Source: Argentina anserina (lineage: Eukaryota > Streptophyta > Magnoliopsida > Rosales > Rosaceae). From it: 64,000 nt of DNA. Below, piece by piece: positions 23,992 through 63,500 of this stretch. Positions within the stretch are counted from its first letter, which is position 1. The number at the start of each line of letters is the position of its first letter. Under the pieces are notes generated by a model. It was not told the DNA's origin. It searched no databases and saw only the letters and a list, made by a program, of their open reading frames with translations. The stretch spans positions 13,578,001 through 13,642,000 of the forward strand of contig NC_065872.1 of assembly GCF_933775445.1 (NCBI RefSeq). Reading direction: 5' to 3'. Both the position numbers and the translations under genes were made by a program.

Positions 23992-24622
23992 CACTTGCCT
24001 ACCACAACTTCCACAATGCGTTTCACCAATACATTTTCATTCCTACAAGGAAAAAGGTTCAAACTATCATCAGGCCTTTAACAAATCTAGAAGTACAAAA
24101 ATGAATAGTCTCGTCTGCTTACTCATAAATCTAGGAATGCCATCCTGAGAGATTGGCCACTTTTCTCAAATTCACTTTCCACTGCTCCATCTTCCCTTCA
24201 TACCGGTCAACCTTTTTATGATCAATGAAAGCTACTTCAAAACTCTTCAATTGATGTCGTACATCAGAAGGATCCACTTCATAAAATATAGGTAGAATTT
24301 TGTTCTTGCCTTCCATGCATTTAAGAATCTTGGTAAGTTCATCCAAACACCATGGGAAAGAAGCAGATAAAACAACCAGCAGGAGCATCGATTATTGGAT
24401 TTCCTTTAGGAGACTAAGAGAAATAGATTCACCTACTTGGAGCTCGTTATCATCCTTGAATGTTCTAATGAGTCCCGTGTTTTGTAACGCCTCGTATAAA
24501 TGGGATAGAAAACCCCTACGAGTATCAATACCCCTGAAACTCAAAAACACATCATGCTTCCACCTAGGAGTTGGTTCAACTGAAGGACATGATTCAGAGG
24601 CTGTTCCAGTGCAGGAGGCCAT
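23992..24622 (-). pseudogene. TIR-only gene with an in-frame stop
   Basis: Plant TIR domain: NADase/immune-signalling family. The first exon starts at ATG 24622 (MASCTGTAS...) and reads HDVFLSFRGIDTR, FKDDNELQVGE, then a TAA codon (24394-24392). The frame then continues through WCLDELTKIL, FYEVDPSDVRHQ and VANLSGWHS, with another stop (24133-24131) just before a GTAAGC donor. A second short exon (24043-23992; acceptor CTTGTAG) reads NENVLVKRIVEVVVGK and stops, the usual linker after a TIR. No NB-ARC or LRR follows. It was probably a TIR-X type gene, now a pseudogene unless the stops are sequence errors. Confidence 0.75.
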
Positions 24623-38360: not shown

Positions 38361-38864
38361 TTATCCTTGATTGGTCTCAATCGATACCACCGTGTAGACA
38401 TCGCACTCATCTTTATCTGGTTCATTTGAACCTCCATATAGACCTGCATAAAACGGAATTTCAGCCCTCCACAAACATGCGTACCTTCCCAGTTGGACAT
38501 GGCGAAATCGAAACTTTTGTTCTTCACTTTCGTCATACGACTCCGGCTCGAACAGAGTGCATGAGAATTTGGAATCGTCTTCCTCTGGTTTCTCAGCCAC
38601 TGCAACAATCCAATTATGATTACTATCCATTCTCACCAAGTACTTATTGTTGTAGCAGCATCTTATGTGCACAAATCCATTCAAACTCTTTGCCATCTCT
38701 ATTTCGAACTTTGCATTTGGGCTCATAGAACCATCTCCATCAAACTTTGATAAACGCTATTGGCAATGCTGGATCATTTGTTATTAAGCTCAAGTATTTG
38801 TTGTTGTATGTAGCTTTCAGTGCGACAAACCTTGGCAACACCACTACCTCGTTCGTCTTGTTTG
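38361..38864 (-). pseudogene. Third amaranthin-type lectin exon, frameshifted
   Basis: Acceptor TTTTCTACAG, phase 1. Very close to the second exon (same CCYNNKYLVRMD and EEDDSKFSCTLFEPE words). One extra base at 38742-38748 breaks the frame before SMSPNAKFEIEM. The end lacks the VNWES/GT donor of the others and instead reads SIETNQG and stops at 38361, so this may be the terminal exon. Confidence 0.75.
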
Positions 38865-41800
38865 CTGTAGAAAATACGTACAAGAAACTATTACATAAAA
38901 TATGTACCAAGAAAGGAAAAACACAAGATAATTTGATGGAACTTAGATATGTAATTTAACAGGTATAATAATATGGCTAGCTATACGTAGCCTAGCTTCG
39001 TTATTACTAATTGCTTATTACAATTTACCTGATTCCCAGTTCACCACTGTATAGACATCACACGCGTCTATATCTGGTTCAGTTGAACCTCCAAATAGAC
39101 CTGCATAAAACGGAATTTCAGCCCTCCACAAGCATGCATACATTCCCAGTTGGACATGGCGAAATCGAAACTTTTGTTCTTCACTTTCGTCATACGGCTC
39201 CGGCTCGAATAGGGTGCATGAGAATTTGGAATCGTCTTCCTCTGGTTTCTCAGCCACTGCAACAATCCAATTATGATTATTATCCATTCTCACCAAGTAC
39301 TTATTGTTGTAGCAGCATCTTATGTGCACAAATCCATTCCAACTCTTTGCCATCTCTATTTCGAACTTTGCTTGCGGGCTCATAACTACATTTCCATCGA
39401 ATTTGATAAAATTTGCTGGTAAGGCCGGATCACTTTTTGTTAACCCTCAAGTATTTGTTGTTGTACGTATCTTTCAGTGCCACAAACCTTGGCAACACCA
39501 CCGTCGTGTTTGTCTTGTAAGCTGAAGAAAAAAAAAAGGACATGAACAATGAACCACGTGAAAAGGATTTAATTCGAACATACTTGATTTAATTGCTTAA
39601 CCACCAAAACACTCTTTGAACATAGCTACAATTGTTAGTCTACATCATGCATGATATATTGGAAATTGTCCATTTGATGTTTACATATTCAAATATTGTA
39701 AATTTACCCGATCATTTGTAACATTTGTATGTCTTTCAAATGTTAGTATGTGTCACTTATCTGTGGAGCAACATAGTTGTCATTCTATGTCTAGAAAAAC
39801 CAAAATATAAAATTTATAAATAAATTCATAAAAAAAGAATAATATAAATTATATCTCATGAGGAGAAATAATTCATATATATTATCAAGATTCAAAAAAG
39901 AGAGAGCTACTTCCTAGCGCCTACGAGATTGTCTAGCCGTCTGCCTAGACTTATTCAAATTATTAAATATTTATTTATTTTTTACATGTATTTGTATAAT
40001 TGAAAATATATAATGATGCTCAATATCAATTTTTAAAATAATCTAAAATCAAAATAAATTAAGTCCAAAATCCATATAATAATATTAGAACAAAACATAA
40101 ATTCTAAAACAAATGCAAGTTCTTTTTTTTTTCTAAATCTTTCCTGAAGTCCTTTGATTTCAAGCCCTAATGCCCAAATCGTTTTCTGTTTCAAAATTAA
40201 TATTGTGTTTGTGTTTTATTTCTAAGTCAAACAATCTTGACCATCGAAGCCCATTTAATTTCCCGACCGCCAAGCATGACCGAAGTGACATGAAATGACA
40301 CGGTAAGCTGCTGCCTAGCGCCTAGGCGACCGTTTTTTAGAACACTGCATAATATTCATAATAATAATTGATAACTTCTTTCTATAAGAAATAATTAAAG
40401 GTGAAATTAAGAACATGATTCTAAATATATACAATCACTTTAGATAAAGAGATCGAAGTTAAATTACAATAGAAAAAGGGTGCGGCTATATATTGTCACC
40501 TCATGATTAGCTCTCTACTCATTTCACCCCACATTTTTAAATTTAACATTAAATTTCTTATTTTATCACTTCTTTTTCCAAGCATGTTCTTATATAACAT
40601 ACCGAATTGAAAAATAATGTTTTTAAAGAAAATCTTTCAATTAATTTACATCAATACAAAAATAATAATAAAGTTCCAGTTATAATTCTATTAATCGGAT
40701 TCATATATTTCTTCTCTCAAATATTTCTTTTTATTATTTTAAAAATATAAATTTTAGTGTTTATCTAATATAAATGTCAAAAAATCATAATTTAACCACT
40801 TTGAGTTGTAGAAAAAAAGTTTTTAATTATCAACTTTGAGAAATGAAAAGAAGATTGATTTTGGTATTATATTTGTTTTTTTTGATGTTCACATGGTATT
40901 ATAAAGATTTTATTAATTAAACAATAATGATTTATAATTTGAATAAAGAATTACGTATGATTATTGAACATAAAATATAAAAAATTTCAACAAGAAGAGA
41001 GAATTAATATTTTCAGATTTGGGTGGAAAAAATCAATATTTAATGACAATAGATGCACTCTACACATATTTAGATTGACGAAAATGATATTCGATTGACA
41101 ATTATAACAAAGTACCACAATATGTTTCGGGTACAAAGCCACAATAATAGCTAACTTTAGGGGCTGTTTTTTGAATAAAAAAATCTTGTATTTTCTTTGG
41201 ATGAAAATCCACCAAGGTGATCTTAGCTCTTTAATAATTTAAATAAAAGTAAAACATTTTTGATTTAAATTAATCAACAATAAGTCACCGTGGTTGACTT
41301 CAACCAATATGAACAGTACTCTCTCGTGTTTTGATAGTTATATGCTTAATTTAATAGGCATGGCCGAACATGAGATTTCAAGTGAGGCGGGATTCAAAAA
41401 TAATGTCCTCTACTACTTTAATACAAAAAAAACCTAGAAAAAATCTAATAAACTACCTATTTATTCATCTAAATTAAAAAATATTAATAATTGTTTCTAT
41501 CTATCAATAATCAAATTACACTAACAATAGATGAGAGAGTTCAAATGTTTTGAAAAAATTCTGAATTATCTGTATAAGTATATGTTGCACACACCCACAT
41601 ATATATATTATATAAAAAAATTGGACATGCAAGGTTTTCGTGCCTGATCAGTGCTATAGGTATAATATAGCTAGCTGGGACGTTATTTATTGCCTAGCTT
41701 TGTGACTACTGATTATATAGCTTACCAGATTCCCCATCAACCAATGTATAGACATCACACTCATCTTTGTCCGGCAAATTTGAATCTCCAAATAAGCCTC

Positions 41801-42911
41801 CATATTTTGAAACATCAACCCTCGTCATCAAACATGCGTACATTCTCATTTGAATATGGCGAAATCGAAACTCTAGTCCTCCAGTTTTGTCGACCGGCTC
41901 CAACTCGAACAACGTGCATGAGATTTTAGATTTGTTTTCCTCTGGTTTTTCAGCCGCTGCAACAATCCAGCGTAATGTATTAGATCTGACCAAGTACTTA
42001 CTGTTGTAGCAACATCGTATGTGCACGAAACTATTCCCAGTCTCTGCCTTCTGTAATTCGAACATTGCATACGGGCTCGTAGCTTCATTTCCATTAAACT
42101 TTATAAACCCTGCTAAGCCTGGATCGTTCTTCGTTAATCTCAAGTACTTGTTGTTGTACTTTGCTTTCCACATCACAAACTTGGGCAACCGTATCTCCCT
42201 TTCGCCGTAGGTAAGCTCAATTTCTGGTGCTTTTACCTTACTATGTACATATGTCACAATGTCATTCAGAAGTTGTCTTTCAGACCTACAAACAAGAAAT
42301 AAGTGTCAGATGATAGCAAAATAATAAATCTAACATGTATAGAAGTATTAAAAACCTTTTTTTGACAAATGTTTTTTATAATGGTCTCATATATGATATT
42401 TAAAACTTAATTACTTATAATTCAGTGTATGCCACCCAGAGAAATTTGCCACTTTTGCTAAAGCCTCTCTCCACTGCTTCACCTTCTCTTTGTCTCTCCC
42501 ATCATTTTCATGCTTAGTGAAGGCTTCTTTAAAGCTCCCATTTTGCTTTCGTACGTCAGAAGGATTGACATGGTAAAAAAGTGGTAGAATTCTGTTACCG
42601 TCCTCCATGCAGTGACAGATCTTTGTAAGTTCCTCCAAACACCAACTAGAAGAAGCGTAGTTTTCCGAGAGAACAACAATTGCAAGCCTTGACTCTTCGA
42701 TTGCCTTCAGGATTGTTGGGGAAATAGGCGCACCAACTTCAAGCTGTGTGTCGTCCTTGAACGTTTGAATTTTATTCACAACTTGCAACTCATGGTATAA
42801 ATAGGATAGAAAACCCTCCCGTGTGTCTTCACCCCTGAAAGTCAAGAACACATCATACTTCCAATGAAATATTGATGGCGGAGGAAGAGATGGAGAGGCT
42901 GGTGAACCCAT
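38361..42911 (-). CDS. TIR-amaranthin (agglutinin) lectin fusion gene, with two further decayed lectin exons
   Basis: Exon 1 (42911-42415) encodes a full TIR domain: DVFLTFRGEDTREGF from residue 20, FKDDTQLEVG, NYASSSWCLEEL with the NADase glutamate at 94, FYHVNPSDVRKQNGSF and VANFSGWHT. It splices TATAA/GTAATT to TTTGTAG/GTCTGAAAG (phase 2) into exon 2 (42285-41726), giving the usual post-TIR linker NYKSERQLLNDIVTYV. Then comes a beta-trefoil agglutinin domain of amaranthin type (NNKYLRLTKNDPG, FVHIRCCYNSKYLVR, RWIVAAAEKPEENKS, SCTLFELEP, DECDVYTLVDGES). Exons 3 (39521-39029) and 4 (38864-38361) are phase-1 lectin exons, each with a one-base frameshift. Splicing exons 1-3 gives a stop at 39432-39430 and a protein of about 382 aa: TIR plus one lectin domain. 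No NB-ARC or LRR. The role is inferred as intracellular immune sensing by glycan or lectin binding. The ATG at 42911 was chosen as the first one before the TIR. Confidence 0.8.
39029..39521 (-). pseudogene. Second amaranthin-type lectin exon, frameshifted
   Basis: Acceptor TTTCTTCAG at the right edge, donor GTAAAT at the left, phase 1 on both sides, matching exon 2. The domain reads LPRFVALKDTYNNKYLRVN, FVHIRCCYNNKYLVRMD, WIVAVAEKPEEDDSKFSC, DVYTVVNWES. One extra base in an A run (T run at 39434-39438 on the plus strand) breaks the frame; removing it would restore a whole domain. Downstream of the break the frame is otherwise clean. Confidence 0.8.
39886..40347. mobile_element. Degenerate hAT-like MITE in lectin-gene intron 2
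   Basis: The right end (inverted) reads CAGTGTTCTAAAAAACGGTC followed by GCCTAGGCG words. The left end has CAAGATTCAAAAAAGAG and TAGCGCCTAC, TAGCCGTCTGCCTAG words. This is the plant pattern of hAT elements with CTAGGCG subterminal repeats. No matching 8-bp TSD found. Confidence 0.5.
40348..41725 (-). other. Rest of intron 2 of the TIR-lectin gene
   Basis: AT-rich and non-coding. The sequence after the exon 2 donor (AAGCTAGGC... then ATATTATACCT) resembles the start of the intron after exon 3, so exon plus intron were duplicated together. Confidence 0.6.
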
Positions 42912-43073
42912 CGAAAACCACGCAAAAAAAGAAGAAGCAAGGTCTGAAGAACAGGAAAAAGAAAACACAAAAAGAAGAAGAAGAAGGCCAACAATGGGGC
43001 AACGTCTGTTAAAGGCCTGCTCTCCGAGCGCCGGCCCTTAATTTGCAGACGGTTTTTAAACCAAGATCAACTC

Positions 43074-43125
43074 GAACCTTCCAGCCCCTTCTCCCTCCAA
43101 AAAGATTTGTTTGGTCCTATATAAA
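43074..43125 (+). promoter_or_regulatory. HSP70 core promoter: heat-shock element and TATA box
   Basis: A heat-shock element CGAACCTTCC (GAA and TTC modules at 43074-43081) with a partial third module, about 37 bp before TATATAAA at 43118-43125. The order and spacing are typical of plant HSP70 promoters. It faces right, away from the TIR-lectin gene, but heat-shock elements work in either direction. Confidence 0.7.
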
Positions 43126-43239
43126 CATCCCCCGACTCCTCTCGGCCTCGACAATTCGAAATCTATCTCTGCAAAACCAAAAGCCTCAATACAATTAAAA
43201 AACTTTAGTTTCTGCAATTCTTTGAGTCAAGTTAGTGTA

Positions 43240-43453
43240 ATGGCCGGAAAGGGTGATGGACCAGCAATCGGGATCGACCTCGGAACCACATACAGCTGCG
43301 TCGGGGTGTGGCAGCACGACCGCGTCGAGATCATCGCCAATGATCAGGGGAACAGAACGACGCCGTCTTATGTGGCGTTTACTGATACTGAGCGGCTGAT
43401 CGGCGACGCCGCCAAGAACCAGGTCGCCATGAACCCTGTCAACACCGTCTTCG
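43240..43453 (+). pseudogene. Cytosolic HSP70 exon 1, truncated gene
   Basis: ATG at 43240 starts [20 protein letters not shown], the N-terminus of cytosolic HSC70/HSP70. [27 protein letters not shown] and VNTVF follow. The donor GTAAGT after codon 71 plus one base is at the conserved position of the single intron in plant HSC70 genes. The rest of the ATPase domain and the substrate domain are absent. Intron sequence runs into the right inverted repeat, so only 71 residues remain. It is a captured fragment, not a working chaperone. Confidence 0.9.
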
Positions 43454-43611
43454 GTAAGTTCTCCCGATCCCTTTTTCTTTTTCTTCTTTATCTTTTTACT
43501 CAGATTTGTGCTTTAATCATTGTGATCTTGGTTTGTGGTTTGGTTAATTGCCGAGTGAACAGTGCGCGGCGCTCGGAGAGCAGGCGTTTACCAGAACTTA
43601 CCCAACAATGG

Positions 43612-60561: not shown

Positions 60562-63500
60562 TGTCTGAAGGGAGTAATTAAGCAGAGAAAGACTTGGTAA
60601 ACGGTAATTTAGTGGTAAGATACTGATTGTTGCTCTTTGAATTGATTGATTGCATATACTTGTTATAATGGTATATATAGACTAATTCACATTAATCACT
60701 AATCACTCCACTAATCACTCCACTACCCGTGATTCCCTCCACTATTTCTTCATTCATCTACTACCCTCCACTCACACTCCCCCTCAAATTGGCGCATACA
60801 TATCAACCATGCCCAACTTTCCAAGTGAGTCATAAAAAGCTTTCTTAGATACTCCTTTTGTGAGCATATCAGCAAGTTGCTCTTCTGTAGGAACAAAAGG
60901 AAAACTGATGATCTTCGCGTCTAGCTTCTCTTTTATAAAGTGACGATCAACCTCCACATGTTTTGTACGATCATGTTGTACATGATTCTGTGAAATATCA
61001 ATAGCTGCCTTGTTGTCACAGTACAGCTGCATAGCACATTTATGTTTAATACCCAAATCTTGTAGAAAGTTTCTAACCCATAACAATTCGCATACTCCCT
61101 GAGCCATACCTCTGTACTCTGCTTCAGCACTAGATCGAGCTACCACCTTTTGTTTCTTACTCTTCCATGTAACAAGATTACCCCCAACAAAGGTAAAGTA
61201 CCCTGATGTGGATCTCCGATATGTAATATTTCCAGCCCAGTCTGCATCTGTGAAGCCACAAATTTCAAGGATCTTATTGTGATTAGAGAACATTACTCCT
61301 CTCTCCGGAGCTGACTTCAAGTACCTCAAGATCCTTACAACAACATCCATGTTGTCCTCGCTGGGATTATGCATGAACTGACTTACTACACTTACTGCAT
61401 ACGCAACATCTGGTCTGGTATGTGATAGATAAATCAGACGTCCAACTAGCCTCTGATAACGAGGTTTGTCAGTAGGGACTTGATCTGGATACTCTGCTAA
61501 CCGATGGTTCTGCTCGATAGGAGTATCAATGGGAGTGCAATCCAACATACATGTCTCTGTTAGTAGATCAAGGATGTACTTCCTCTGACACAGATAGATA
61601 CCATCACTACCACGGGCTACTTCAATGCCTAAGAAGTACTTGAGTGTACCTAGGTCCTTCATCTCAAACTCTGTGGCAAGCTGTTTCTGTAATCTATCCA
61701 CCTCAACAGTATCATTCCCAGTAACTACCATATCATCAGCATATATAATTAGGGCTGTTACCTTCCCTTGTTGATGTTTGAGAAATAACGTGTGGTCTGA
61801 ATTACTCTGTTTGTAGCCAATCTTCCTCATGAATTGTGAGAATCTTCTAAACCAAGCACGAGGTGACTGTTTAAGACCATACAAAGTCTTTCTCAATCTG
61901 CATACGGAGTTACTTGGAGAAGCGGCCACATATCCAGGCGGAAGATCCATGTATACTTCCTCCGTTAGTTCTCCATGAAGGAATGCATTCTTAACATCAA
62001 ACTGCCTAAGTGGCCAGTTCAAGTTAGTAGTGACATAAAGAAATACCTGGATAGTGTTTATTTTTGCAACATGTGCAAATGTCTCATCATAGTCTATGCC
62101 ATATGTCTGGTGAACCCCTTCGCCACTAAGCGTGCTTTATACCGGCTTATTGACCAATCTGGATTATGCTTCACTGTAAACACCCAACGACATCCTACAG
62201 TCTTATTGCCATATGGTGGAGGTACAAGCTCCCAATTATTGTTCTTTTGTAATGCTTCCATCTCTTCCTCCATTGCTTTCCTCCATTTTGGATCTCCCAA
62301 TGCATCTTGCACTTTGTTAGGTACTGATACAGTAGATATTTGATTCACAAATGACTCATATGACTTAGATAATCTTTTGGTAGATATAAAATTCGCTACC
62401 GGATACTTGGCTTTAGTCTGAAGGGTAGGTTCATATCTTTTTGTTGGTTGACCCCGAGTAGACCTATTTGGCAAAACATATTGTCTACTATTACCTCTAA
62501 TAGAATGACTAACCTCAGGTGAGTGATATTCTGTACCAGGAGAGCATTGGTCAGGGGTATAAATAGTTGTACGGGAGTCATGAGTGGCAGTTGTGTTGTC
62601 AGCTTCTGGTGCCTGAATCTCTTGAGTGACGACCTCAGGTGGTGCCTGTGTGGCTTGGGTAATCTCAACGGAACCTATTACCATATCAACTGACGCACTT
62701 GTCTCCCCCTCTCCATGATACAACTCTTCAAAATATGAATTCTCCCCCTGAAGAGCAGTATCAGAAAAGGGAAAATAACTCATGTCCTCAAAAAAGGTAA
62801 CATCCATAGTAACATAGTACTTCCGAGTAGGGGGATGATAGCACCGGTACCCTTTCTGATGTCCTCCGTAACCAACAAACACACATTTAACCGCCCGGGC
62901 ATCCAACTTAGAACGCTGATGTGGTGGAAGATGAACAAAAGCAACACCACCGAAAACACGGGCAAGAAGATTATGAAAAGAGGGTAATGAGACATGAGAT
63001 GCAAGCACCTCATAGAGAACTTTCCCTTGAAGGACACGAGAGGGAAGACGATTAATAAGGTGGGCGGAAGTAATGACAGCATCACCCCAAAGGTATTTAG
63101 GCATGTGGGCACTAAAACAATACACCGAGCCATGTCAAGTAAATGACGATTTTTTCTTTCAGAAACCCCATTTTGCTCAGGTGTGTAGGGACACGTTGTT
63201 TGAAGAATAATCCCGTGTGTGTTAAAAAACTCCTGAAAGTGATGATTCACATATTCCCCCCCCATTATCAGAACGAAGAACTCGAATGGTGGCATTATAT
63301 TGTGTTTAGACAGAGGTATGAAAGACACGAAAAGCTGGAAAAACCTCATCTTTATTTTTAAGAAGAACAATCCATGAAAGACGTGTGCAGTCATCAATAA
63401 ATGACACAAAATATCGCATGCCTGACACAGTAGACTCTTTAGAGGGTCCCCAAACATCAGAATGAATTAGTTTAAAAGGAAGAAAACTTTTAGTAGAAGT

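What the first reader, a model, noticed from the sequence alone, without database searches (positions are those of the whole stretch)
41726..42911. TIR domain spliced in frame to an amaranthin-type lectin domain
Seen: exon 1 is a complete TIR with the catalytic-type glutamate (CLEEL). Its phase-2 donor fits the acceptor of the next exon, and the join gives a normal post-TIR linker leading straight into an agglutinin domain with no stop. Known: TIR fusions to Nictaba-type and jacalin-type lectins exist, and amaranthin domains occur in chimeric proteins. I do not know of a described TIR-amaranthin immune receptor, so this could be a new architecture: glycan recognition coupled directly to TIR NADase output without NB-ARC/LRR.
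Basis: partly seen in the sequence, partly recalled or inferred. Interest (0 to 1): 0.9.

Follow-up and report, generated by a model that had tools for sequence, protein, structure and literature searches.

The report
Plant TIR enzyme fused to lectin
A silverweed gene joins an immune-signalling TIR enzyme domain to an amaranthin-type sugar-binding domain, a pairing shared with a blackberry protein, although the further lectin copies behind it are broken in this genome.

Summary
On the minus strand a TIR exon (42911-42415) splices in frame, phase 2, to an amaranthin/agglutinin exon (42285-41726); Pfam finds both domains. Two more amaranthin exons follow, each with a one-base frameshift. Rubus argutus P0001 is an intact TIR-amaranthin-amaranthin protein, and the two TIRs form a supported clade (99/95). 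The TIR came from a TIR-NB-ARC gene: 19 of 19 nearest own-genome TIR paralogues examined lie beside NB-ARC. The fusion point lies inside exon 2, near residue 190. Of 242 proteins fetched (120 with TIR, 124 with agglutinin) only these two hold both. Ten literature searches found no description. Likely mechanism: a lectin- or clustering-gated TIR NADase. The catalytic Glu is kept; three of four residues of amaranthin's T-antigen loop are not; no transcript or activity evidence was available. New variant of a known kind (TIR-lectin chimeras).

The parts
42415..42911 (-). Exon 1: ATG and TIR domain (P0003 residues 1-166), catalytic-type Glu94
42286..42414 (-). Intron 1, GT-AG, phase 2, 129 bp; same place and phase as in TIR-NB-ARC paralogues
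   Evidence: nucleotide similarity across the acceptor in 7 of 7 paralogous loci compared, E 0.01 to 1e-8
41726..42285 (-). Exon 2: about 24 residues of post-TIR linker, fusion point near residue 190, then amaranthin domain A1
39522..41725 (-). Intron 2 (2204 bp) of the NCBI gene model
   Evidence: exact reproduction of P0003; no transcript data seen
39029..39521 (-). Exon 3: amaranthin A2 with a one-base insertion relative to A1 and A3; P0003 ends in it at 39430
38361..38864 (-). Probable exon 4: amaranthin A3 with a different one-base insertion; its boundary is read from the sequence and is in no annotation that I saw
42989..43611 (.). Mutator-type gene-capture element (42998-43602, 605 bp) with 9-bp target duplications; it carries an HSP70 promoter and first exon and lies 77 bp upstream of the ATG

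Best explanation
A genuine chimeric gene. One rearrangement in an ancestor shared by Rubus and Argentina (both Rosoideae) put the 5' end of a TIR-NB-ARC immune receptor gene (TIR exon, intron 1 and about 24 codons of exon 2) in front of a tandem amaranthin lectin gene. The product is a soluble TIR enzyme in which the lectin part takes the place of NB-ARC and LRR. Most likely mechanism: the amaranthin part binds a ligand (glycan, charged polysaccharide or partner protein) or self-associates; this brings TIR domains together, which then cleave NAD+ and signal through EDS1-family receivers, as proposed for TIR-only proteins. Shown by computation: the fusion, its intron, its predicted folds, the conserved Glu, and one other species. 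Inferred: ligand gating, NADase activity and EDS1 signalling. In this species only A1 can be translated whole, so the gene acts as a reduced single-lectin form or is on the way to loss.
Against: No transcript or protein evidence. A2 and A3 are frameshifted. Three of four T-antigen loop residues differ. The AE-face His is Tyr37 here (His in 96 and Tyr in 7 of 126 rows). A1 has a long end branch, 0.28-0.30 against 0.15-0.16 for Rubus A1. A lectin tree does not show the two A1 domains as sisters. A mobile element sits 77 bp upstream of the ATG. Only the best of five structure models reached pLDDT 81; the others were 66-73.
Confidence: 0.5

Rival explanations
1. A decaying relic: the fusion works or worked elsewhere (Rubus), but in Argentina it is becoming a pseudogene, with lectin exons 3 and 4 broken and the upstream region split by a mobile element.
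For: Two independent one-base insertions; element 77 bp upstream of the ATG, 97% identical to its HSP70 source and so probably recent; long A1 branch; AE-face His changed.
Against: All 352 codons of TIR plus A1 are open and all splice sites used by P0003 are canonical; TIR dN/dS against paralogues 0.27-0.34; NCBI annotates it as a protein.
Confidence: 0.25
2. The lectin part is not a sensor. The protein acts as a TIR-only enzyme controlled by its expression level, and the amaranthin domain is a passive tail or a stabilising or localising module.
For: T-antigen loop residues not kept; tandem lectin lost in this species; expression-driven condensation has been suggested for TIR-only proteins (PMC12856790 passages).
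Against: The lectin fold is predicted intact. Single-domain apple amaranthins agglutinate bacteria by electrostatic binding (PMC12861480 passages), so loss of the T-antigen loop need not mean loss of binding; A1 is basic, pI 8.5. PMC12856790 also reports inhibitor proteins as regulators.
Confidence: 0.2
3. Two separate neighbouring genes, a TIR-only gene and a lectin gene, wrongly joined in prediction.
For: No RNA evidence was available; the annotations are automatic.
Against: Exon 2 opens with 24 residues of post-TIR linker that match TIR-NB-ARC relatives, and similarity to paralogues crosses the acceptor; the same pair is annotated independently in Rubus.
Confidence: 0.05

Closest known systems
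TIR-Nictaba chimerolectins (Arabidopsis PP2-A5; seen here in Capsicum P0109)
   Same: N-terminal plant TIR joined to a lectin domain, no NB-ARC or LRR; PP2-A5 is induced by spider mite attack (PMC12355970 passages)
   Different: Different lectin family (Nictaba/PP2 instead of amaranthin); separate placement of the Capsicum TIR in the tree
TIR-jacalin proteins of Fragaria (P0027, P0028, P0031)
   Same: Related Rosoideae TIR, 60-63% identical, same linker, lectin C-terminus
   Different: Jacalin fold, separate TIR clade (100/93), so probably a separate capture
Rosoideae TIR-NB-ARC proteins with At4g27190/At4g27220-like NB-ARC (P0024, P0025, P0029; own loci L010-L018, L021, L024, L028)
   Same: TIR, phase-2 intron and linker; the likely parent group
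   Different: NB-ARC is replaced by amaranthin after about residue 190
Amaranthin-aerolysin proteins (AAT; wheat Hfr-2, cucumber AAT) and apple MdAGG
   Same: Amaranthin domain, usually no signal peptide (PMC5554364 section 14); MdAGGs are needed for induced fire-blight resistance (PMC12861480 passages)
   Different: Aerolysin or nothing in place of a TIR; PMC5554364 lists no TIR partner
NLRs with integrated lectin domains (grass NLR-jacalin; a soybean GNA-TIR-NB-ARC-LRR)
   Same: Lectin and immune-receptor domains in one protein (PMC4759884 and PMC6272470 passages)
   Different: Those keep NB-ARC; other lectin families

Membership tests
Plant TIR domain of the NADase type | TIR domain by profile and fold | tested here: met
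Plant TIR domain of the NADase type | Catalytic glutamate | tested here: met
   Glu94 in 126 of 126 TIR rows; by counting along the alignments it falls on RUN1 Glu100, the residue named in the title of 7s2z
Plant TIR domain of the NADase type | Self-association face with the conserved His (residue recalled) | tested here: inconclusive
   Tyr37 here; His in 96, Tyr in 7 of 126 rows; Rubus P0001 has His
Plant TIR domain of the NADase type | NAD+ cleavage and EDS1-dependent signalling | not testable with these tools
   needs biochemistry and plants
TIR-NB-ARC-LRR receptors (TNL) | NB-ARC and LRR | tested here: not met
   Pfam scan of the 358-aa product finds only TIR models and Agglutinin; precomputed Pfam of P0003 likewise
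TIR-NB-ARC-LRR receptors (TNL) | Phase-2 intron and linker after the TIR exon | tested here: met
   19 of 20 TIR exons, the window's included
Amaranthin lectin family | Agglutinin domain PF07468 | tested here: met
   64.4 bits against cut-off 25
Amaranthin lectin family | Beta-trefoil fold of amaranthin | tested here: met
Amaranthin lectin family | T-antigen loop N74-H75-Y76-W77 | tested here: not met
   aligned T269, L270, R271, W272: 1 of 4 kept (residue numbers from the PMC12355970 passage). The other four N-domain residues that the passage names did not fit the chain numbering and were not used
Amaranthin lectin family | Tandem domains in a head-to-tail dimer that form the sugar site | tested here: not met
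   A2 and A3 are frameshifted here; two intact domains in Rubus P0001; dimerisation not testable
Amaranthin lectin family | Carbohydrate binding | not testable with these tools
   needs a glycan array
TIR-Nictaba (PP2-A5 type) chimerolectin | Nictaba/PP2 domain | tested here: not met
   the lectin part is PF07468; no PP2 match

The most novel reading that the evidence does not exclude
A Rosoideae-specific class of intracellular immune sensor in which amaranthin domains replace NB-ARC and LRR and gate a TIR NADase by ligand-driven clustering; one of several lectin and kinase modules that related Rosoideae TIR genes have captured behind the same phase-2 intron.
Probability: 0.3. Interest if true: 0.78.

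Novelty: new variant of a known kind. Interest (0 to 1): 0.55.

Why it matters
TIR-lectin proteins are little studied. A further lectin family joined to a TIR, with the parent gene and the junction identifiable, makes the question 'can a lectin gate a TIR enzyme without NB-ARC?' testable in one small protein, using the intact Rubus relative. It also points to Rosoideae TIR genes that have repeatedly been joined to new C-terminal modules (amaranthin, jacalin, kinase, NB-ARC).

Tried and rejected
Chance adjacency of a TIR exon and a lectin exon: rejected (expected about 1.2e-4; second species).

Separate lectin gene starting in exon 2: rejected, because exon 2 opens with the post-TIR linker.

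Fusion by recombination within intron 1 (exon shuffling at the intron): rejected, because the junction lies about 24 codons inside exon 2.

Sisterhood of the two A1 domains: not shown. In the free trees Rubus A1 is outside a group of the window's A1 plus unfused Rubus copies; holding the two fused A1s together costs 3.45 log units, p-AU 0.236, not rejected. One fusion with later TIR loss in Rubus copies, or gene conversion, both stay open. Holding A2, A3 and the second Rubus domain together is likewise neither shown nor rejected (0.30 lower, p-AU 0.447).

Bacterial-type promoter scan of the leader says nothing for a plant. tRNA scan: none. A first intron pattern returned something for 18 of 20 loci, several of them wrong joins; a looser pattern gave 19 of 20, L026 unresolved.

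Limits: one search listed 120 of 241 hits, 120 of 262; candidate lengths were limited to 0.55-1.75 of the query; relatives sharing few 5-residue words are missed. More fusions may be among the unlisted hits. The genome searches scored a limited candidate set. The paper library holds open-licence papers only.

Full report
What is there. The gene is on the minus strand. Exon 1 (42911-42415) encodes a complete TIR; a GT-AG intron of 129 bp (42414-42286, phase 2) leads to exon 2 (42285-41726), an amaranthin/agglutinin domain. Pfam finds TIR (1.7e-52) and Agglutinin (1.7e-17) in the spliced product. The NCBI protein P0003, 'uncharacterized protein LOC126791088 [Argentina anserina]', 382 aa, is reproduced letter for letter from the window by exons 42911-42415, 42285-41726 and 39521 onward.

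Exon 2 ends in a GT donor. Exon 3 (39521-39029) and a probable exon 4 (38864-38361) encode two more amaranthin domains. In an alignment of the three lectin exons each of these two carries one extra base, at different places, so neither can be read in full; the annotated protein stops after 30 residues of exon 3. Rubus argutus P0001 (515 aa) holds one TIR and two amaranthin domains without a break.

Is the junction real? At 19 of the 20 TIR exons examined in this genome, the window's included, a phase-2 intron at the same place leads to the same kind of linker (L026 unresolved). In 7 of 7 paralogous loci compared, nucleotide similarity starts 6-23 bases before the end of intron 1 and runs 16-55 bases into exon 2 (E 0.01 to 1e-8). 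By protein sequence the TIR side ends at about residue 190 (PIEIEF in Rosa chinensis P0019, PIGIEF in Rubus P0001, APEIEL here), and the lectin side starts with TYGE..IRLP.FV, matching the unfused Rubus lectins P0002, P0004 and P0005. The fusion point thus lies within exon 2; intron 1 came with the TIR.

Origin. In a TIR tree of 68 rows, from 57 proteins chosen out of the 120 TIR proteins fetched, this TIR and that of Rubus P0001 form a clade (99/95). Rosa chinensis P0019 (TIR only; its tail resembles the start of an NB-ARC linker) and the unnamed P0037 come next, then Rosoideae TIRs joined to NB-ARC, to a kinase or to a second TIR. All 19 own-genome paralogous loci fetched (about 1.5 kb either side of the TIR) hold NB-ARC beside it and none has an agglutinin match; 12 match the At4g27190/27220-like NB-ARC best and 7 a classical TNL one (the labels rest on source names and Pfam lists). 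Lectin domains: exons 3 and 4 are sisters (100/99), and exon 3 is nearest, after exon 4, to the second domain of Rubus P0001. A1 of the two fusions fall in one eight-row set (99/95, 98/97), but unfused Rubus copies stand between them; forcing the pair is not rejected (p-AU 0.236).

How rare. One search returned 13 lectin relatives, 2 with a TIR. One search found 262 and listed 120, 2 with a TIR. One search found 241 TIR relatives and listed 120, 2 with an agglutinin domain. My rescan of the 242 proteins fetched found 120 with TIR, 124 with agglutinin and 2 with both, P0001 and P0003. The Prunus, Malus, Pyrus and Rosa rugosa amaranthins listed carry no TIR in their precomputed Pfam lists. In this genome, of the three places where PF07468 matches cluster (10 matches), one has a TIR match beside it; the nearest listed TIR of the other two is tens of kilobases or more away (both lists are capped).

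Constraint. TIR exon against six paralogues: dN/dS 0.27-0.34; A1-A2 0.37, A1-A3 0.46, A2-A3 0.33 (Nei-Gojobori, my script). These are averages over both lineages and do not show that selection acts on the gene today.

Upstream. A 605-bp element (42998-43602) with 9-bp target duplications and similar terminal inverted repeats carries about 496 bp of an HSP70 promoter and first exon, 97% identical to a copy on C5, and ends 77 bp before the duplication-side of the TIR start codon. It has the marks of a Pack-MULE (recalled) and could have altered expression.

Literature. Ten searches in an open-licence library found no TIR-amaranthin description among the listings and passages I looked at. PMC5554364 surveyed 84 genomes and names aerolysin, fascin, hydrolase, TRAF-like, B-box and Bet v1 partners (abstract, passages, section 14). 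PMC5485960 lists TIR/Nictaba in Arabidopsis (passages); PMC6272470 one GNA-TIR-NB-ARC-LRR in soybean (passages); PMC4131498 mentions TIR-Nictaba and amaranthin-kinase (passages); PMC6362431 has no 'TIR' (passages); PMC4759884 lists jacalin and B_lectin in NLRs, with 'agglutinin' absent from its main text. PMC6299034 and PMC10341869 (passages) report Rosaceae agglutinin genes without a TIR partner. Subscription journals are mostly outside this library.

Verdict. Observation confirmed; interpretation partly supported. A new lectin partner for a known kind of chimera, with one intact relative, plausibly an immune sensor, partly degraded in the window's species.

Noticed in passing
window 42989-43611: Mutator-type gene-capture element (605 bp, 9-bp target duplication CAACAATGG, similar terminal inverted repeats) carrying an HSP70 promoter and first exon 97% identical to G000:C5:25146089-25146572; it lies 77 bp upstream of the TIR-lectin ATG, head to head.
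   Followed up: partly
loci L010-L018, L021, L024, L028; proteins P0024, P0025, P0029: A group of Rosoideae genes joins a TIR exon to an NB-ARC resembling At4g27190/At4g27220-like proteins (recalled as CC-type NLRs): 12 of 19 own-genome loci examined.
   Followed up: partly
protein P0016 (Rosa sericea): Predicted TIR-TIR-protein kinase fusion whose TIRs fall near the TIR-amaranthin clade.
   Followed up: no
proteins P0027, P0028, P0031 (Fragaria): TIR-jacalin proteins with related TIR domains, apparently a separate lectin capture in the same subfamily.
   Followed up: partly
window 24122-24595 (minus): Second TIR-like stretch in the window, interrupted by two stop codons within or at its end.
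   Followed up: no
window 60787-63134 (minus): Long open frames that read like a Copia-type retrotransposon polyprotein (motif recalled; no family search done).
   Followed up: no
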